A stretch of 64,000 nucleotides of DNA. It comes from Collinsella aerofaciens. GTDB taxonomy: Bacteria; Actinomycetota; Coriobacteriia; Coriobacteriales; Coriobacteriaceae. Of this stretch, positions 22,260 through 54,630 are shown piece after piece (within the stretch, counting starts at the first letter, position 1; every line of letters begins with the position of its first letter). The stretch spans positions 434,001 to 498,000 of the forward strand of contig NZ_CP084004.1 in assembly GCF_020181355.1 (NCBI RefSeq). The letters run 5' to 3'. A program made the translations under genes and the position numbers. The notes beneath the pieces are model-generated. The model was given only the letters and a program-made list of their open reading frames with translations. It had not been told where the DNA came from and did not search any database.

Positions 22260-22866
22260 GTCCACTACCCTGCCTTCTATGTCGTATACAATCCGTGCGT
22301 TGCGCGGAATAACGGGTGTTCCCACCAGCTGACCTGGTATTTGACCCCACACTTGCGCACCGGGGTGTTTGCTCGGGAGGCCGTAACCACCTTCACGACT
22401 GGCCCGCTCGCCCGCGAGGCGGTATTGCCCCAAAGAAAGTAGAACGGACGGTGCGGCTTACATCTAGGACGCGCCATGATCGCGCCGCGCGCACGCGGTC
22501 GCTTACGTGGATCCCTTTGACCGCGTCTGTCTTGGACTAGGATGGACATTTCGTCCGTCCGCAACCACAGCCTGGCAGGAACGTAGCGCATTATAGCTAA
22601 GTTCAAGCTAAAGTTTAAGGTTAGGGGCGTCATTCGCACCGTGAGCACAGATTTTGCAGGTCGGAGCGGACCATTCGTGCCCCCATGAAGCCCGGAGCTC
22701 CCCTACGGGGAGCTCCGGGGCACCCGCCTCAGAGCGCCGTGTGCAAAAAACGGCAAATATGAGTACTGTCACCAATTTAGTAGCAGCGTTTTTCCGCCCC
22801 GCGAGCCCTTTTTGAGTTCCGCACAGCCTGCTTGGCGCCAAGATATTCCACATTCGTTTATTATCT
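22260..22866. other. Intergenic region (607 bp) before IS256 copy 1
   Basis: No gene seen in either strand. It holds a perfect 13-bp hairpin CCCGGAGCTCCCC / GGGGAGCTCCGGG (22691-22719, loop TAC, no T-run) and repeat M1 (22741-22788). The 150 bases just upstream of the lipoprotein are GC-rich and partly self-complementary; a small RNA is possible but I cannot assign one. Confidence 0.6.
22741..22788 (+). repeat. Extragenic repeat M, copy 1
   Basis: Contains CGGCAAATATGAGTACTGT and TTAGTAGCAG. Close copies occur in reverse at 24424-24469 and forward at 40085-40134. In each case an IS256 copy lies nearby. Confidence 0.8.
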
Positions 22867-24372
22867 GGTAGCGCGCAGAGATGTGGTGTAAGAGGCGGGG
22901 CATGCCCCGCCTCCGCCCTTTCTTGAAAGGGAGGGGACACCGCCTAGAATTCGTCGTTGGAGTAATGAAGGTGACGAATGGAAGGAAAGGCGATGCCCCA
23001 AGAAGAGAGTGTACTGCGCCTCGGCCGCGACGAGGCCCTCGAGGCGGCGAGGCTTTGGCAGGAGTGCGGCGACGCGCGCGAGTTCGCGTGCAGGGTGCTG
23101 GGCAGCGTGATGAACGCGCTGATGGACTCCGAGGCCCAGCAGATGTGCGGCGCGAGCCGCAACGAGCGCAGCGACGGCAGGGAGAACAGCCGCAACGGCT
23201 ACCGCCCCAGGTCGCTCAAGACCGCCGTGGGCGACGTGGAGCTCGAGATACCCAAGCTCAGGCACGGCACCTACTACCCCGAGGGCATGCTCGCGCGATG
23301 GTCGCGCGTCGACACCTCGGTGGCCGCCATCGTGCAGGAGATGTACGTATGCGGCGTGTCCACCCGCAAGGTCGAGCGCGTGGCGTCCAAGCTGGGCATA
23401 TCCTCGCTGTCGAGCTCGGAGGTCTCGAGCCTCTGCTCCGACCTCGACGCCGAGGTGGCGGAGTTCCGCCGCCGCGACCTGTCGGGCACGCCGTGCTGCT
23501 ACCTGTGGCTCGACGCCACCTACATGAGCTGCAGGGTCGGCTCGTCGGTCGTCTCGCAGGGCGTCGTGACCGCGATCGGGCTGGGCGCCGACGGGCGCAA
23601 GCACTTCCTGGGCTGCGACGTGGTCGACACCGAGAGCGAGGACTCCTGGGCGGCATTCCTCGGCGGGCTGCGCGAGCGCGGGCTGGCCGGCGTTCGCCTC
23701 GTGGTCTCCGACAGCCACGCCGGGCTCGTGGCCGCCGTCTCGCGCCTGTTCCAGGGCTGCGCCTGGCAGCGCTGCGTGACGCACCTGCAGCGCAACCTCC
23801 AGAGCGCCTGCTCGGGCAGGCCCGAGGACTCCAAGGCGGCCGTCAGGGACCTCGTGCACGCCGCGGTCTACCAGGACGACCCCGACCTCGCGCGCTGCGT
23901 GTGGGCCGAGGCGGCGCCCTGGGTGGCGTCGGTGTCCGCCAGGGCCGGCGAGGTCTTCGAGCAGGCCGAGGACTCCGCGCTGGCGTTCACGGCCTTCCCC
24001 AGGGCGCACTGGGCCAAGCTCCGCACCAACAACGTCCAGGAGCGCGCCAACCGCGAGATCAAGCGCCGCTACAGGGTCGTGCAGTCCTTCCCCTCGAGGG
24101 AGTCGATGCTGCGCCTGACGTGCGCGAGCCTCATGGAGACCGAGGGACAGTGGTCCCAGCAGCGCGTGTTCTCCGAGGCCTCGGCCGCCGAGGGCTTCGC
24201 CGAGCCCGCGGACAGGCCGGCCCCGACAGAGGGGAGGCGCCGCGCGCTCGGGCGGCGCGCCAGGGAGATAGTGGACGAGATAGTCGAGAGGCGCGGTCTC
24301 AAGAAGGAGTAATATCGGGACTTGCAGCGACGGACCTCAGGACGCTCTTACACCACGTCTGCGCGCGCCACC
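22867..24372 (+). mobile_element. IS256-family insertion sequence, copy 1
   Basis: A 1506-bp element with ends GGTAGCGCGCAGAGATGTGG and, on the other strand, GGTGGCGCGCGCAGACGTGG, flanked by the exact 8-bp duplication TATTATCT (22859-22866 and 24373-24380). It is identical to copy 2 at 40172-41677 as far as I can read. Near the left end there is a palindrome GGCGGGGCATGCCCCGCC. Intact transposase; evidently active recently. Confidence 0.97.
22978..24312 (+). CDS. IS256/Mutator-family transposase, copy 1
   Basis: A 444-residue DDE transposase. First Asp in YLWLDATYM, second Asp in LVVSDSHAGL, the C/D2H-type region CAWQRCVTHLQRN, and Glu in NNVQERANREIKRRYR. The N-terminal region with SRNERSDGRENSRNGYRPR is typical of the family. 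The start could be ATG 22978 or, with GGAAGGAAAGG upstream, the ATG five codons later. Confidence 0.95.
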   Translation: MEGKAMPQEESVLRLGRDEALEAARLWQECGDAREFACRVLGSVMNALMDSEAQQMCGASRNERSDGRENSRNGYRPRSLKTAVGDVELEIPKLRHGTYYPEGMLARWSRVDTSVAAIVQEMYVCGVSTRKVERVASKLGISSLSSSEVSSLCSDLDAEVAEFRRRDLSGTPCCYLWLDATYMSCRVGSSVVSQGVVTAIGLGADGRKHFLGCDVVDTESEDSWAAFLGGLRERGLAGVRLVVSDSHAGLVAAVSRLFQGCAWQRCVTHLQRNLQSACSGRPEDSKAAVRDLVHAAVYQDDPDLARCVWAEAAPWVASVSARAGEVFEQAEDSALAFTAFPRAHWAKLRTNNVQERANREIKRRYRVVQSFPSRESMLRLTCASLMETEGQWSQQRVFSEASAAEGFAEPADRPAPTEGRRRALGRRAREIVDEIVERRGLKKE

Positions 24373-40171: not shown

Positions 40172-41677
40172 GGTAGCGCGCAGAGATGTGGTGTAAGAGG
40201 CGGGGCATGCCCCGCCTCCGCCCTTTCTTGAAAGGGAGGGGACACCGCCTAGAATTCGTCGTTGGAGTAATGAAGGTGACGAATGGAAGGAAAGGCGATG
40301 CCCCAAGAAGAGAGTGTACTGCGCCTCGGCCGCGACGAGGCCCTCGAGGCGGCGAGGCTTTGGCAGGAGTGCGGCGACGCGCGCGAGTTCGCGTGCAGGG
40401 TGCTGGGCAGCGTGATGAACGCGCTGATGGACTCCGAGGCCCAGCAGATGTGCGGCGCGAGCCGCAACGAGCGCAGCGACGGCAGGGAGAACAGCCGCAA
40501 CGGCTACCGCCCCAGGTCGCTCAAGACCGCCGTGGGCGACGTGGAGCTCGAGATACCCAAGCTCAGGCACGGCACCTACTACCCCGAGGGCATGCTCGCG
40601 CGATGGTCGCGCGTCGACACCTCGGTGGCCGCCATCGTGCAGGAGATGTACGTATGCGGCGTGTCCACCCGCAAGGTCGAGCGCGTGGCGTCCAAGCTGG
40701 GCATATCCTCGCTGTCGAGCTCGGAGGTCTCGAGCCTCTGCTCCGACCTCGACGCCGAGGTGGCGGAGTTCCGCCGCCGCGACCTGTCGGGCACGCCGTG
40801 CTGCTACCTGTGGCTCGACGCCACCTACATGAGCTGCAGGGTCGGCTCGTCGGTCGTCTCGCAGGGCGTCGTGACCGCGATCGGGCTGGGCGCCGACGGG
40901 CGCAAGCACTTCCTGGGCTGCGACGTGGTCGACACCGAGAGCGAGGACTCCTGGGCGGCATTCCTCGGCGGGCTGCGCGAGCGCGGGCTGGCCGGCGTTC
41001 GCCTCGTGGTCTCCGACAGCCACGCCGGGCTCGTGGCCGCCGTCTCGCGCCTGTTCCAGGGCTGCGCCTGGCAGCGCTGCGTGACGCACCTGCAGCGCAA
41101 CCTCCAGAGCGCCTGCTCGGGCAGGCCCGAGGACTCCAAGGCGGCCGTCAGGGACCTCGTGCACGCCGCGGTCTACCAGGACGACCCCGACCTCGCGCGC
41201 TGCGTGTGGGCCGAGGCGGCGCCCTGGGTGGCGTCGGTGTCCGCCAGGGCCGGCGAGGTCTTCGAGCAGGCCGAGGACTCCGCGCTGGCGTTCACGGCCT
41301 TCCCCAGGGCGCACTGGGCCAAGCTCCGCACCAACAACGTCCAGGAGCGCGCCAACCGCGAGATCAAGCGCCGCTACAGGGTCGTGCAGTCCTTCCCCTC
41401 GAGGGAGTCGATGCTGCGCCTGACGTGCGCGAGCCTCATGGAGACCGAGGGACAGTGGTCCCAGCAGCGCGTGTTCTCCGAGGCCTCGGCCGCCGAGGGC
41501 TTCGCCGAGCCCGCGGACAGGCCGGCCCCGACAGAGGGGAGGCGCCGCGCGCTCGGGCGGCGCGCCAGGGAGATAGTGGACGAGATAGTCGAGAGGCGCG
41601 GTCTCAAGAAGGAGTAATATCGGGACTTGCAGCGACGGACCTCAGGACGCTCTTACACCACGTCTGCGCGCGCCACC
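40172..41677 (+). mobile_element. IS256-family insertion sequence, copy 2
   Basis: 1506 bp, apparently identical to copy 1, flanked by its own exact 8-bp duplication TTGAAACT (40164-40171 and 41678-41685). Same orientation as copy 1, 17.3 kb apart. Confidence 0.97.
40283..41617 (+). CDS. IS256/Mutator-family transposase, copy 2
   Basis: A 444-residue DDE transposase, the same protein as at 22978-24312 residue for residue. Catalytic Asp, Asp and Glu are present, so it is likely functional. Confidence 0.95.
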   Translation: MEGKAMPQEESVLRLGRDEALEAARLWQECGDAREFACRVLGSVMNALMDSEAQQMCGASRNERSDGRENSRNGYRPRSLKTAVGDVELEIPKLRHGTYYPEGMLARWSRVDTSVAAIVQEMYVCGVSTRKVERVASKLGISSLSSSEVSSLCSDLDAEVAEFRRRDLSGTPCCYLWLDATYMSCRVGSSVVSQGVVTAIGLGADGRKHFLGCDVVDTESEDSWAAFLGGLRERGLAGVRLVVSDSHAGLVAAVSRLFQGCAWQRCVTHLQRNLQSACSGRPEDSKAAVRDLVHAAVYQDDPDLARCVWAEAAPWVASVSARAGEVFEQAEDSALAFTAFPRAHWAKLRTNNVQERANREIKRRYRVVQSFPSRESMLRLTCASLMETEGQWSQQRVFSEASAAEGFAEPADRPAPTEGRRRALGRRAREIVDEIVERRGLKKE

Positions 41678-51247: not shown

Positions 51248-51321
51248 GTTTTTGTAGTCATCCGGGCGCTCGCTTTGAGCTGTTTCGTGCAGCGTCCGCG
51301 CAACACAATGGGGGTATGAAC

Positions 51322-52254
51322 ATGTCCGATTTGATTAAACTGACGCCGATCTTTCACGAGAAGATCTGGGGCGGCCGCCAGCTCGAAACCGTATTTGGTT
51401 ACGACATTCCCAAGGGTCCCATCGGTGAGTGCTGGGCCATCTCGGCCCACCCCAATGGCGACTGCCAGATTGCGGAGGGCCCGTATGCCGGTCACACGCT
51501 GTCGTGGCTGTGGGCCGAGCATCGCGAGCTCTTTGGCAACTGCGAGGGCAAGGAGTTCCCGCTACTCGTTAAGATTCTGGACGCCAAGGACGACCTTTCG
51601 ATCCAGATTCACCCCAACGACGAGTACGCCGCCGAGCACGAGAACGGCAGCCTGGGCAAAACCGAGTGCTGGTATGTGCTGGACTGCGAGCCCGGCTCCA
51701 CGATTATCGTCGGCCAGCGCGCGCATGACCGCGCCGAGGCCGCACAGATGATCGAGGACGGCCGCTGGGACGACATGCTCAACGTGCTGCCGATCCACAA
51801 GGGCGACTTTTTCCAGATTGATTCCGGCACTGTGCATGCCATCAAGACCGGCACGCTCATTTTGGAGACGCAGCAGTCGAGCGACGTGACGTATCGCCTG
51901 TATGACTACGACCGCCCTGGCACCGACGGCAAGCTGCGTCCCCTGCACATTGAGCAGAGCCTCGACTGCATCGACTTTGATGCTCAGGCTCCGACCGACG
52001 GCACGGTGACCGCGCCCGAGGTGGACGGCGTGACCGAGCTCGAGTCTAACTCCTGCTACACCGTCGATCGCGTGCGTGTCGACGGCAGCAAGACCCTCGA
52101 CCAGCGCTGGCCCTTCATGTGCCTGTCGGTCATCGACGGCGAAGGCACCGTCTGCGGCGACCCCGTCCACAAGGGAAGCCACCTGCTAGCTCCGAGCACC
52201 GTGGACAAGATTGAGCTCGAGGGCAATATGGAACTGATTGTCAGCCACCTGTAG
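51322..52254 (+). CDS. manA: Mannose-6-phosphate isomerase (type I, zinc)
   Basis: A 310-residue phosphomannose isomerase. Zinc ligands are seen in SIQIHPND (Gln, His), GKTECWYVL (Glu) and SGTVHAIKTGTLILETQQ (His). It interconverts mannose-6-P and fructose-6-P. ATG 51322 is preferred because GGGGG stands seven bases upstream; ATG 51316 is too close to that site. Followed by structured element A. Confidence 0.95.
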   Translation: MSDLIKLTPIFHEKIWGGRQLETVFGYDIPKGPIGECWAISAHPNGDCQIAEGPYAGHTLSWLWAEHRELFGNCEGKEFPLLVKILDAKDDLSIQIHPNDEYAAEHENGSLGKTECWYVLDCEPGSTIIVGQRAHDRAEAAQMIEDGRWDDMLNVLPIHKGDFFQIDSGTVHAIKTGTLILETQQSSDVTYRLYDYDRPGTDGKLRPLHIEQSLDCIDFDAQAPTDGTVTAPEVDGVTELESNSCYTVDRVRVDGSKTLDQRWPFMCLSVIDGEGTVCGDPVHKGSHLLAPSTVDKIELEGNMELIVSHL

Positions 52255-52273
52255 GTCACCGGTCCCCAAGCGC

Positions 52274-52400
52274 TCGCCGGGACGGGGCGCGGGGTTTGAT
52301 CGCCTGCTCGGACAGTCCCGCTCGAACGGAGAGCACATTAAGTGCTCTCCGGCTCGTGCAGAACTCGCAATCGACCAAATCCCGCGCCCCGTCCCGGCGA
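52274..52400 (+). ncRNA. Conserved structured element, copy A
   Basis: A 127-nt element. A 20-bp perfect outer stem (TCGCCGGGACGGGGCGCGGG, 52274-52293, with 52381-52400) continues as an eight-pair extension; inside are TCGCCTGCTCGG (52300-52311), CAGTCC, a perfect 10-bp hairpin CGGAGAGCAC / GTGCTCTCCG with ATTAA loop (52327-52351), and CGTGCAGAACTCGC (52355-52368). All these internal features recur in copy B (54501-54630, other strand) while the stems differ by compensating changes. It could be a structured RNA or a small mobile palindrome. It starts 20 bases after manA, in the sense direction. Confidence 0.75.
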
Positions 52401-52428
52401 ACCTCTGACTAGTTACGACAATCAAAAA

Positions 52429-52473
52429 GCAACAAGGGGCTCTTCCGTTCATCAACGGAAGAGCCCCTGCCAT
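52429..52473 (-). terminator. Terminator T1 of the AbiE-type operon
   Basis: GGGGCTCTTCCGTT and AACGGAAGAGCCCC form a 14-bp stem with a four-base loop; on the minus strand followed by TTGTTGCTTTTTG. It has nearly the same sequence as T2 at 54375-54420, with compensating changes in the stem. Confidence 0.85.
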
Positions 52474-52492
52474 ACATTACGAATCAAGATGC

Positions 52493-53260
52493 CTACAAAT
52501 ACACTCTTTCGAGAAACGATAACGTGTCCTGAAGCCGCGCCCTTTCCTTACGGTTGGTCTGCCGATTTACATACGAAGCAAAGTCCGTAAGAAAATCCTC
52601 CGCATCAACCCTCATTTGCCCCGTTAGCTCCAAACGCGCTGAGGACGACAACAAACCGGCAAGTCGAGCAACATCTGAACGATGCTTCCGCCGATCTATA
52701 TCGTTGCAATGACGCCCTTCTTCATAGCTCCTGTTGATATCAATGTGCGCACGCATCTTGAGGGGGATGATATGGAGCGCATCGAGCAACGTGATGCCCT
52801 CTACGTTCGTTGCGTTGTCGCGAATAAATTCGTAGTAGCCATCGTCGAGAATAATGGCGGAAAGACTCGATATCGCCCCGTCAAAGGAAAGAGGAGCTAC
52901 CTCGCTCATTTCGTCTTCGAGCACAAAATCAGGATGTCGGGCAAACAACTCGATTTGACCGGGATAGTCTAGGGCTCGCCTTGATCCTTTGGGCAAACAG
53001 AACCGATAGTAAGTGCACTTTCCATCGCCGACCTTTCCAACCTCGTATCCAGCTGCTTTGATAAATGCCCACAATGCAGTGGCAAATTCAACGCCTTCCC
53101 CATCAACAATTACGACGACATCCAAATCTTCGGTAGCCCTGAATGAATCACCTTCGCTGTCAAATAGAACGCTGCAGGCCCCTCCACCAATAAGGACGTA
53201 ACCACCTTTGCAGCTGCTCATGGCGTCGGCAAATCGCTCTATTCCCCTCACTTTTGGCAT
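52493..53260 (-). CDS. AbiEii-like nucleotidyltransferase toxin
   Basis: A 255-residue protein of the AbiEii/AbiGii (type IV toxin-antitoxin) nucleotidyltransferase family. LIGGGACSVL and the acidic pair in RATEDLDVVV are the nucleotidyltransferase GS/DxD motifs; PLKMRAHIDI is a conserved later motif (Lys). Such toxins block growth, often by modifying tRNA, and can act in phage defence. It overlaps the antitoxin gene by 13 bases, as expected for coupled translation, with AGGAGG before its ATG. Confidence 0.88.
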   Translation of the reverse strand: MPKVRGIERFADAMSSCKGGYVLIGGGACSVLFDSEGDSFRATEDLDVVVIVDGEGVEFATALWAFIKAAGYEVGKVGDGKCTYYRFCLPKGSRRALDYPGQIELFARHPDFVLEDEMSEVAPLSFDGAISSLSAIILDDGYYEFIRDNATNVEGITLLDALHIIPLKMRAHIDINRSYEEGRHCNDIDRRKHRSDVARLAGLLSSSARLELTGQMRVDAEDFLTDFASYVNRQTNRKERARLQDTLSFLERVYL

Positions 53261-54270
53261 ATCGTCCTCCTGAGTTGTTCGACCGCATCGAGCAGACGGT
53301 CATCTTTGTAATCCGCTTTTGCGCAGGCAACGTATAAGGAGAACGGGTCGACACATTGCAAACCTGTCGTATCAAAACTAACATCGGACGGCGCGTCCAC
53401 GGGATACGACCAGATCTCAATCTCGATAGCGGCCGGTTCGTACCACTGGGCCTCCAACCATCTGTCGCCCATGTGCTCTCTTAAGGCATCTACCTGATAC
53501 TTTTCGAGAGCAACGGTTGGGACAGAATCATTATGAGCAAGGTCGGACATATAGCTAAGGGCAGACACACCGGAAAGCAGCGCATCAACGGCGCGTAGCT
53601 CTGTTCTCTCGATAACCTTCTTGAGCCGGATTCGCTCTAAAACGGGTGTGCGAAGATAGTCCTCAAATCCATCCAGCAACGTCTCGGTCGACAGCCCGGC
53701 GTCGCACAATATACGCTTTTTGCCGTCCCGCATAATCAACCCAGGAGCTATAGCGGCGATTTCCGAAAGATAGCCGCTGACGCTTGCCGCGCTTTTGCCA
53801 CACAGACGAGCTAGGTCGCCGGCGGAGCAGTCAACCCATCGTCCCGCGATGAGATTTAGAACGATTCGTTGAGATTGGGGCGAAAGCGAAGCAGCAGGAG
53901 AAGCACCCAGCACCTCATCGGAAATAACGGCTCCGATAAACGGCAGAAACGCATTTCGCTCATCTCGGATATATGCGATCCCCTCCGAAGAAAGCGCGCG
54001 CATAAAGCCTAAATCCATAGCATCCCAGCAAATTGCCACCGGGCGAGCATCTATCTTACGCACTGCATTGACGAAATTTCGCGCCGAAATGACACTGGGC
54101 GGTTCTTTTGGTTCCGCAACAATAAAACGGCCTTGCTCAGACATGCCGAGCCGCGCTAAGCGAAGCGAATACCGCTCGAGATACATGCGAGGAATCTGCA
54201 TCTCAACTGGCTCCGAGTCGATGGCGAGCTCTAAAGAGAAGAGCCTTTTTGGGAGACAATTTAGCAGCAT
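53248..54270 (-). CDS. AbiEi-like antitoxin/regulator
   Basis: A 340-residue protein upstream of the toxin. Residues ~130-180 look like a winged helix (VDCSAGDLARLCGKSAASVSGYLSEI); the rest is a C-terminal domain that in AbiEi binds DNA and counters the toxin. It is longer than typical AbiEi (200-300 residues), and only its position, the HTH and the partner support the call. Start ATG 54270; a GTG two codons earlier is possible. It lies behind a promoter with an inverted repeat, as in autoregulated AbiE modules. Confidence 0.65.
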   Translation of the reverse strand: MLLNCLPKRLFSLELAIDSEPVEMQIPRMYLERYSLRLARLGMSEQGRFIVAEPKEPPSVISARNFVNAVRKIDARPVAICWDAMDLGFMRALSSEGIAYIRDERNAFLPFIGAVISDEVLGASPAASLSPQSQRIVLNLIAGRWVDCSAGDLARLCGKSAASVSGYLSEIAAIAPGLIMRDGKKRILCDAGLSTETLLDGFEDYLRTPVLERIRLKKVIERTELRAVDALLSGVSALSYMSDLAHNDSVPTVALEKYQVDALREHMGDRWLEAQWYEPAAIEIEIWSYPVDAPSDVSFDTTGLQCVDPFSLYVACAKADYKDDRLLDAVEQLRRTICQK

Positions 54271-54288
54271 GTCCACTCACCGTTTTCA

Positions 54289-54345
54289 TTTCAGTTACAT
54301 TTAAGTATCTAACTGAAATTATACTGAATCGTATAAAATCATCAA
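54289..54345 (-). promoter_or_regulatory. AbiE-type promoter and operator
   Basis: On the minus strand TTGATG (54345-54340), 16 bases, TATAAT (54323-54318), then an inverted repeat TTTCAGTTA / TAACTGAAA (54289-54297 and 54310-54318) just downstream of the -10. AbiEi-type antitoxins repress by binding such repeats. Confidence 0.8.
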
Positions 54346-54374
54346 TCATCAAAGCCAAGCGCACCATTTAAAAC

Positions 54375-54420
54375 GCAACAAGGGGCTCCCCCGTTCTTTA
54401 ACGGGGGAGCCCCTTGCCAT
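54375..54420 (-). terminator. Terminator T2, near twin of T1
   Basis: GGGGCTCCCCCGTT and AACGGGGGAGCCCC with a CTTT loop, then TTGTTGCGTTTT on the minus strand. It lies after element B and probably ends transcription from uvrD. Confidence 0.85.
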
Positions 54421-54500
54421 GTCTAAGTATTCAGCCCACCCGGTTCTCCAGATCAAAAAGCGAACCAGCAAAGCGACGTTCGTCCAGCAACGTTACCCAA

Positions 54501-54630
54501 GGACCTGGGCGGGCGTATAGGGCAACATCGGTCGCGAGTTCCGCACGCAAAGGAGGCCACTTAATGTGGCCTCCGTCTTGCGCAGGACTGCCCGAGCAGG
54601 CGATGTTGCCCTATACGCCCGACCAGGTCC
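54501..54630 (-). ncRNA. Conserved structured element, copy B
   Basis: A 130-nt element homologous to copy A, on the opposite strand. Its outer stem is 30 bp with one mismatch (54501-54530 with 54601-54630) and shares no sequence with A's; the inner hairpin GGAGGCCAC / GTGGCCTCC (54552-54574) differs from A's by paired changes; TCGCCTGCTCGG, CAGTCC and CGTGCGGAACTCGC are kept. It begins 8 bases after the uvrD stop, in the sense direction. Confidence 0.75.

What the first reader, a model, noticed from the sequence alone, without database searches (positions are those of the whole stretch)
52274..54630. Two covarying ~130-nt structured elements flank an AbiE-type toxin-antitoxin pair
Element A (52274-52400, plus) and element B (54501-54630, minus) share an internal core (TCGCCTGCTCGG, CAGTCC, a hairpin with ATTAA loop, CGTGC-GAACTCGC) in the same order and orientation, while their 20-30 bp outer stems are entirely different yet each is near-perfectly paired, and the inner hairpin differs only by compensating changes. 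This pattern means that structure is selected or that the element reshapes by inverted repeats. Both begin soon after a stop codon (manA; uvrD) in the sense direction and point toward the AbiE genes. Candidate novel structured RNA or small palindromic mobile element; the Rfam motif Collinsella-1 is a possible known match that I could not check.
Basis: seen in the sequence. Interest (0 to 1): 0.85.

Follow-up and report, generated by a model that had tools for sequence, protein, structure and literature searches.

The report
New gene-end hairpin family in Coriobacteriales
Next to two genes of a gut bacterium lie copies of a hairpin element that no searched catalogue names; it is repeated about 25 times in the genome and scattered through the bacterium's order, its centre stays the same while its long paired arms are renewed, and it mostly sits just behind the stop codon of a gene.

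Summary
A and B are two of 25 copies in this Collinsella genome. The family occurs, patchily, in 180 of 395 genomes searched in the order; an exact core pattern hit 16 of 35 genomes of the order and 0 of 361 other Actinomycetota. A nearly invariant core (CAGTCCTG, a compensating hairpin, CGTGCGGAACT) sits between arms of about 20-50 bp that differ from copy to copy yet stay paired. In 4 of 17 locus groups with near-identical flanks some strains carry quite different, still palindromic arms. Upstream genes are sense in 53 of 68 cases, with fixed spacing to the stop codon in 49 of these; an intrinsic-terminator-like site follows in 43 of 120, against 7 of 120 on the other side. Best reading: a transcribed 3'-UTR hairpin family. 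Arm mismatches show no clear G.U preference (63 G.T, 54 A.C), so DNA-level arm-to-arm copying probably maintains pairing. The "AbiE" pair is incidental: strains have A and B without it, and Pfam and PADLOC do not recognise it. Not Collinsella-1; no Rfam family. The molecular role is inferred, not shown.

The parts
52260..52414 (+). Element A, whole unit (about 155 bp) that is absent from otherwise similar strains
   Evidence: manA-uvrD gap 438-439 nt with A and B, against 281-285 nt with B only; arms absent from the empty site. Ends read by eye, +/- a few bases.
52274..52302 (+). Element A, left (5') arm, locus-specific sequence
   Evidence: (I2)
52303..52371 (+). Element A, conserved core with internal loop, bulged helix and 9-bp inner hairpin (ATTAA loop)
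52372..52400 (+). Element A, right (3') arm, pairs with the left arm
54601..54630 (-). Element B, left (5') arm; 7 bases lie between the uvrD stop codon and the arm
   Evidence: (I4)
54531..54600 (-). Element B, conserved core
54501..54530 (-). Element B, right (3') arm
51316..52254 (+). manA, gene upstream of A in sense
   Evidence: the same arrangement is annotated manA in NZ_OY725717.1
54638..57622 (-). uvrD-type helicase gene, upstream of B in sense
   Evidence: UvrD-helicase domain protein in NZ_OY725717.1
52435..52468 (.). terminator-like hairpin downstream of A
   Evidence: I8, I3
54379..54416. second, similar terminator-like hairpin (81% between the two, I3), downstream of B in its sense
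   Evidence: I6, I3
   Evidence: absent in strains that keep A and B; no Pfam or PADLOC match; the two genes at this place in NZ_OY725717.1 are annotated 'hypothetical protein'

Best explanation
A and B belong to an undescribed family of transcribed 3'-UTR hairpins spread through the order Coriobacteriales. Shown: the copies have one conserved core; most lie just behind a stop codon in sense orientation; they are enriched before an intrinsic-terminator-like site; and most sampled places are occupied in related species. Inferred: in the mRNA the element folds into a long rod whose arms are a sequence-free double-stranded handle. The nearly invariant bulged helix (AGUCC / GGAACU with an extra A, next to a UCGGA-type internal loop) is a docking site for a protein of this order, and the rod guards or processes the 3' end of the message. 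Inferred from near symmetry of mismatches: the arms are kept identical at the DNA level by arm-to-arm template switching, which explains how pairing survives very fast sequence turnover.
For: 25 copies in the genome. In one search, 33 of 35 genomes of the genus (own included) have a match and 15 of the 35 have at least 40 matches, where most copies match on both strands. Same core in distant genera. Helix counts on 31 chosen sequences: inner hairpin 99.5% paired with two-sided changes in 6 of 7 pairs, bulged helix 99.4% paired and nearly invariant; covariation score 0.543, against 0.10-0.22 for slid versions and 0.188 shuffled. Sense upstream gene in 53 of 68 cases, stop-to-core gap 35-67 nt in 49 of those 53 (orthologues not collapsed, ORFs not annotated). 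Terminator-like site 3' of the element on the same strand in 43 of 120, 7 of 120 on the other side, 31 of 478 control windows. Six of nine copies inspected in an annotated record follow a gene in sense. U.G wobble on the sense strand at one core pair in 97 of 132. For 13 of 14 sampled own loci both flanks are listed in at least one of six related genomes, 204-241 nt apart (one about 293), as for an occupied site; no listed pair has empty-site spacing, but the list was cut (read by hand). 41 distinct two-sided Watson-Crick exchanges against 43 other changes between close orthologues. Template switching as a hairpin-maintaining process is published (PMC8794818, abstract and passages seen).
Against: In the arms G.T and A.C mismatches are about equally common (63 v 54, p 0.46; 59 v 57), so selection on RNA pairing of the arms is not visible. 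15 of 68 upstream neighbours are antisense. In the annotated record 3 of 9 inspected copies lie against their neighbours: one in the thrC-thrB gap, one above groES, one of the two between the pnp and ribonuclease J genes. 77 of 120 copies have no terminator-like site by my simple scan. The A site shows a clean gain or loss of about 155 bp, as a mobile unit would. In A4 the short helix outside the internal loop pairs in only 61% of cells, and the arms in 75%, partly from register shifts. No transcript was seen, no partner protein was found (RT, Y1, TROVE tested), and I saw no gene class shared by the hosts of the element.
Confidence: 0.5

Rival explanations
1. A non-autonomous mobile palindromic DNA element: the core is a hairpin recognised by a transposase or recombinase, copies insert whole (arms included) near gene ends, and sense placement reflects target choice or tolerance.
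For: The A site is occupied in 7 of 17 readable regions and empty in 10, with the whole palindrome missing and no clear target duplication by eye. Three convergent pairs start 211-276 nt apart in the genome. G.T about equals A.C in the arms. Y1 transposase genes in 11 of 13 element-bearing genomes and 1 of 10 without a listed match.
Against: Most sampled places are occupied across related genomes, and one is shared with a low-copy species of the genus (L013 and L080 = G017). The conserved part is the centre, not the ends. Element-rich G289 and G276 have no Y1 match. The 20 Y1 regions I fetched, of 38 listed, carry no copy of the core; the hairpins seen in the printed part are unrelated. No transposase stood out among the 25 largest neighbour clusters printed. 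No hit in viral contigs (exact pattern) or phages; the only plasmid-collection hit is a 900-kb C. aerofaciens record with housekeeping genes.
Confidence: 0.27
2. A self-maintaining DNA palindrome without host function: replication template switching keeps and renews the arms, and the core is kept by conversion between copies.
For: Template-switch-like symmetry; chimeric arms such as L226, L048, L069; inner-hairpin versions exchange at one locus.
Against: Core constancy between families of the order, spacing to stop codons and terminators, and retention of the same sites suggest selection.
Confidence: 0.13
3. A variant transcription terminator or RNase-blocking stem with no specific partner.
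For: Position behind stop codons; very stable stem.
Against: No T-run at the end of A or B, a separate terminator-like site often follows (43 of 120), and a plain stem would not need an invariant bulged core.
Confidence: 0.07

Closest known systems
REP / RAYT system (repetitive extragenic palindromes)
   Same: Dispersed intergenic palindromes, often in inverted pairs, with palindromic features kept; described in PMC2817692 (passages seen).
   Different: REPs are given as 20-40 bp (abstract of PMC3733652 in the listing) with a GT(A/G)G head, and they flank their rayt gene. Here the core is about 70 nt, arms about 20-50 bp of free sequence, no such head (19 of 155 v 19 of 155 control), and no core at 20 fetched Y1 regions.
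Collinsella-1 RNA (RF01700)
   Same: Same host group.
   Different: One locus elsewhere in the genome; no match at A or B.
Hairpins maintained by template switching (Monttinen and Loytynoja 2022, PMC8794818)
   Same: Compensatory changes, sometimes of several bases, with few intermediates (abstract and passages).
   Different: That paper treats RNA genes such as rRNA, and speaks of helices of 2-10 consecutive pairs; here arms of about 20-50 bp are replaced in whole at several loci.
Candidate structured RNAs of human microbiomes (Fremin and Bhatt 2021, PMC8040213)
   Same: Reports 250 palindromic candidates in human-associated bacteria (passages seen).
   Different: The palindromic examples described in the passages seen are mostly or entirely from Bacteroidetes; the one Collinsella candidate named there (HMP2_254, 51 bp) lies upstream of a ribosomal protein gene. 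Supplementary lists were not open to me, so an unnamed overlap is not excluded.
Integron attC sites (from recall)
   Same: Folded sites with conserved extrahelical bases and variable stems.
   Different: In attC the conserved boxes are at the ends; here the centre is conserved. No integron integrase was sought.

Membership tests
REP/RAYT | GT(A/G)G head at the 5' base of the palindrome | tested here: not met
   19 of 155 near the arm base, 19 of 155 in control windows
REP/RAYT | rayt gene flanked by two inverted copies | tested here: not met
   no core in 20 fetched Y1 regions of 38 listed; element-rich G289 and G276 have no Y1 match
Collinsella-1 RNA (RF01700) | match to the covariance model | tested here: not met
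   no match at A or B; single copy at C1:3652-3848
any Rfam 15 family | match above gathering score | tested here: not met
   only sub-threshold matches, e.g. the microRNA model MIR3454 over A on both strands (33 bits, gathering score 142), judged a chance match to a long hairpin
intrinsic terminator | GC-rich stem followed by a T-run | tested here: not met
   no T-run after the arms of A and B (other copies not scored for this); a separate terminator-like site follows in 43 of 120 copies
terminal-inverted-repeat transposon / MITE | conserved ends (TIRs) | tested here: not met
   ends are the variable part, centre is conserved
terminal-inverted-repeat transposon / MITE | target-site duplication at an occupied site | tested here: inconclusive
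   none evident by eye at the one occupied/empty comparison, the A site
structured cis-RNA family (as a kind) | covarying pairs and near-invariant unpaired or bulged positions | tested here: met
structured cis-RNA family (as a kind) | transcribed | not testable with these tools
   placement only
   Pfam and PADLOC none; weak nucleotidyltransferase-like hit E 0.04

The most novel reading that the evidence does not exclude
A gene-end RNA family of a whole order in which only the pairing, not the sequence, of the long arms is inherited: arms are renewed wholesale while an invariant core is docked by a dedicated, still unknown protein or enzyme. It would be a natural system where DNA template switching drives the evolution of a functional RNA.
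Probability: 0.25. Interest if true: 0.9.

Novelty: new variant of a known kind. Interest (0 to 1): 0.74.

Why it matters
It adds a sizeable element family, absent from Rfam, to a major group of human gut bacteria. About 25 places in this genome carry it, mostly at gene ends, which matters for reading transcripts and mRNA decay in Collinsella and its relatives. At several loci the stems change completely between strains with near-identical flanks yet stay paired, so the question of how long RNA or DNA stems survive mutation becomes directly testable in bacteria, separating selection on RNA from DNA template switching.

Tried and rejected
Rfam families: none; Collinsella-1 tested on the whole genome and rejected. 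A first pattern search also hit 12 copies of another sequence (CGCCTGCTCGGGCAGGCCCGA); these read like an insertion-sequence gene (recalled resemblance, no family search made) and are unrelated. Arms as inverted duplication of the target: rejected at A, because the empty site holds neither arm. Arms copied recently from another locus: no clear donor; apart from instances of the A site, the best cross-locus matches are about 20-24 nt with one or two mismatches and follow a weak shared consensus. Linked reverse transcriptase, Y1 transposase or Ro60/TROVE: RT in 3 of 23 genomes, TROVE in 0 of 23, Y1 in 12 of 23 and correlated, but without the core at the 20 regions fetched. A conserved 6-mer at the arm base: enrichments were dominated by orthologous copies, left open. 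Papers: the listed rows (20 of 138; 15 of 295; 15 of 2,574; 15 of 1,468; 12 of 186; 10 of 29) show no title or abstract start describing this element; passages were read in PMC8040213 and PMC2864571, PMC12306157 (no mention of Collinsella or Eggerthella) and PMC2817692, and the abstract and passages of PMC8794818. No paper was read whole.

Rows dropped before counts: one search counted 2,336 arm pairs from 117 instances after dropping arms scoring under 12; one search kept 155 of 195 candidate instances (arm score at least 14); one search kept 149 of these and aligned 59 different cores; alignment A4 holds 31 rows chosen by me; one search used only orthologue pairs with 1-5 differing positions; one search skipped 25 of 157 for the three-pair count, used arms with at least 15 of 20 paired, and chose the best-pairing inner hairpin in each core; one search used pairs with enough flank. 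In one search three of 20 regions ended at a contig edge; two of them (L088, L094) show the left part of A. Four more distant manA loci printed (L103, L104, L106, L110) show no A in the stretch printed and were not counted. In one search only ten candidates per genome were scored and stricter filters applied, so their counts are lower bounds. Several named contigs and numbered genomes are the same assemblies (contig lengths agree); exact duplicates were removed in the scripts, but orthologous copies are not independent.
Full report
Observation. The window region holds A (52274-52400, +) and B (54501-54630, -). The repeat finder gives 34-bp arms 88% complementary for A and 30-bp arms 97% complementary for B. 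The cores align with nearly all motifs in common while the arms do not. Both fold about ten standard deviations below shuffles. The core is 69 nt in A and 70 nt in B, and in the eight first copies the arms pair from next to it, with single mismatches in two of them. Seven bases lie between the uvrD stop codon and B, nineteen between the manA stop codon and the arm of A.

A family, not two copies. A degenerate pattern found eight copies in the genome. A covariance model from these eight (R1) found 25 full-length copies above 64 bits; the other 24 of its 49 rows are 22 mirror matches of the same places and two weaker places. In 58 genomes (own included) 39 match; 33 of 35 of the same genus do, 15 of them with 40 or more matches, roughly 20-26 copies each since most copies match on both strands. 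Over 395 genomes of the order 180 match, in 41 of 123 genera, with only ten candidates scored per genome. Twelve distant genomes were re-searched, and the 29 sequences printed from them carry the same core. The exact pattern CAGTCCTG-N24-42-CGTGCGGAACT hits 16 of 396 Actinomycetota genomes: all 16 are among the 35 of this order in the sample, none among 361 others, and the reversed control pattern is silent. An exact pattern in viral contigs and a blastn search of phages found none; in plasmids one C. aerofaciens record of 900 kb with groEL, pnp and manA.

Anatomy. Order-wide alignment (59 cores; 31 in A4): CAG, CCT(G) and (C)GTGCGGAACT are almost invariant. They form a helix AGTCC/GGAACT with an extra A. 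Outside it lie an internal loop (TCGGA, TCTA, TCAAA and similar) and a short helix, then the arms. Inside it lie three interchangeable block pairs (GCTCGCAC/GGCTCGTGC, GCTCACGAC/TGTTCGTGC, GCGCAAGAC/TTTGCGTGC) and a 9-bp hairpin. With the structure I named, 84.9% of cells pair, against 64.3% shuffled and 37-48% when slid. The inner hairpin pairs in 99.5% of cells with two-sided changes in 6 of 7 pairs. The short outer helix pairs in 61% of cells and the arms in 75%; part of this comes from the loop length shifting the register in some rows. The structure came from these same sequences, which favours it over the slid versions. In 79 different cores, 704 of 711 inner-stem pairs are Watson-Crick, choosing the best-pairing hairpin in each.

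Arms. 155 of 195 candidate instances, in 67 locus groups, were kept. Within a locus the arms can be near-identical with mirror-image double changes (B locus: GTATGGGG/CCCCATAC and GTATAGGG/CCCTATAC). They can also be quite different although the flanks are nearly identical. In the group of L030 the upstream flank is 95-98% identical while left arms reach only 42-51% against L200 or L204. In 4 of 17 locus groups with upstream flanks at least 90% identical some pair of strains has left arms below 60% identity (36 of 273 such pairs). At the B site L097 and L098 have other arms altogether. L226, L048 and L069 carry the left arm of one version and the right arm of another, which looks like recombination in the core. 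Close orthologues show 41 distinct two-sided exchanges and 43 other changes. Mismatches are G.T 63, A.C 54, others 45 (binomial p 0.46 for G.T against A.C); an RNA-selected stem should prefer G.U on the sense strand. The arms share a weak consensus near GGGCGGGGCATAAGGTT, and the left arm is richer in G and T than the right.

Placement. In 95 loci, 53 have as longest upstream ORF (at least 150 aa, ending within 120 nt) a sense one and 15 an antisense one; in 49 of the 53 the stop lies 35-67 nt before the core, so the base of the arm is close to the stop codon (ORF calls only). A terminator-like site follows on the same strand within 300 nt in 43 of 120 copies, occurs on the other strand on the 5' side in 7 of 120, and in 31 of 478 control windows. 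Annotated neighbours in NZ_OY725717.1 (an incomplete gene table) agree in part: of nine copies looked at, six follow a gene in sense (pnp, manA, uvrD, tsaD and two hypothetical genes) and three lie against their neighbours (thrC-thrB gap, above groES, and the second copy between pnp and the ribonuclease J gene). Upstream genes are mixed housekeeping and metabolic proteins by their sequences, judged by eye.

Stability and change. Flanks of 14 own loci were sought in six related genomes. For 13 of the 14 both flanks are listed in at least one genome, 204-241 nt apart and once about 293, as expected for an occupied site; none of the listed pairs has the spacing of an empty site; L048 could not be judged because its flank is repeated, and the list was cut by the tool (read by hand). 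One locus is shared with a low-copy species of the genus with a wholly different arm (L013 and L080, the latter from G017). The A site varies: of 17 readable manA-uvrD regions 4 have A, the two-gene insert and B; 3 have A and B; 8 have B only; 2 have no A and a different element at B. Three further regions end at a contig edge, two of them inside A. The difference is about 155 bp, the entire palindrome.

The insert. The two genes between A and B match nothing in Pfam or PADLOC. The 255-aa protein has a marginal hit to a nucleotidyltransferase-like structure, so 'AbiE-type' is a plausible guess but not established. The insert lies between two similar terminator-like hairpins and is absent from strains that keep A and B; it is not part of the element.

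Interpretation. Core conservation across families of the order, block covariation, spacing behind stop codons and terminators behind it point to a transcribed 3'-UTR element. Near strand-symmetric mismatches and mirror-image changes point to DNA template switching as the keeper of the arms, a process published for RNA hairpins. What binds the core, and what the element does to the message, are inference. A mobile palindrome remains the main rival because of the A-site gain or loss and three close convergent pairs. Links to RT, TROVE and Y1 transposases were tested without a positive lead; the Y1 correlation (11 of 13 against 1 of 10) is noted, but the core is absent from the 20 Y1 regions fetched.

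Known or not. No Rfam family above threshold, not Collinsella-1, not REP by head motif or rayt flanking. The listed rows of literature searches show no description, but each list was cut; supplementary tables of PMC8040213, which holds thousands of microbiome candidates, could not be opened, so an anonymous entry there is possible.

Noticed in passing
22320-22580 (-): raiA RNA (RF03072), 145 bits, the only Rfam match above gathering score in the window.
   Followed up: no
23805-23825 and 41110-41130 (+): Two of 12 genome copies of a sequence CGCCTGCTCGGGCAGGCCCGA inside what reads like an insertion-sequence transposase gene (recalled resemblance).
   Followed up: partly
52435-52468 and 54379-54416: Two similar terminator-like hairpins flank the two-gene insert like a direct repeat; in the regions without the insert whose start was printed I saw one, so the insert may have come in by recombination at the terminator.
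   Followed up: partly
L332, L349, L351: Three regions with Y1 transposase genes carry other short palindromes or repeats of their own (GACGGGG- and CCCCAGGGG-type) near them (printed part).
   Followed up: no
L226, L048, L069: Elements with the left arm of one allele and the right arm of another, apparent recombinants broken in the palindrome.
   Followed up: partly
L222: A partly duplicated left half next to an intact element.
   Followed up: no
NZ_OY725717.1: Listed as plasmid 6 of C. aerofaciens but 900 kb with groEL, pnp, manA, tsaD: probably a chromosome piece.
   Followed up: no
L171 (G169): A genome of another family carries a copy and flank very like C. aerofaciens at one locus: recent transfer or contamination.
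   Followed up: no
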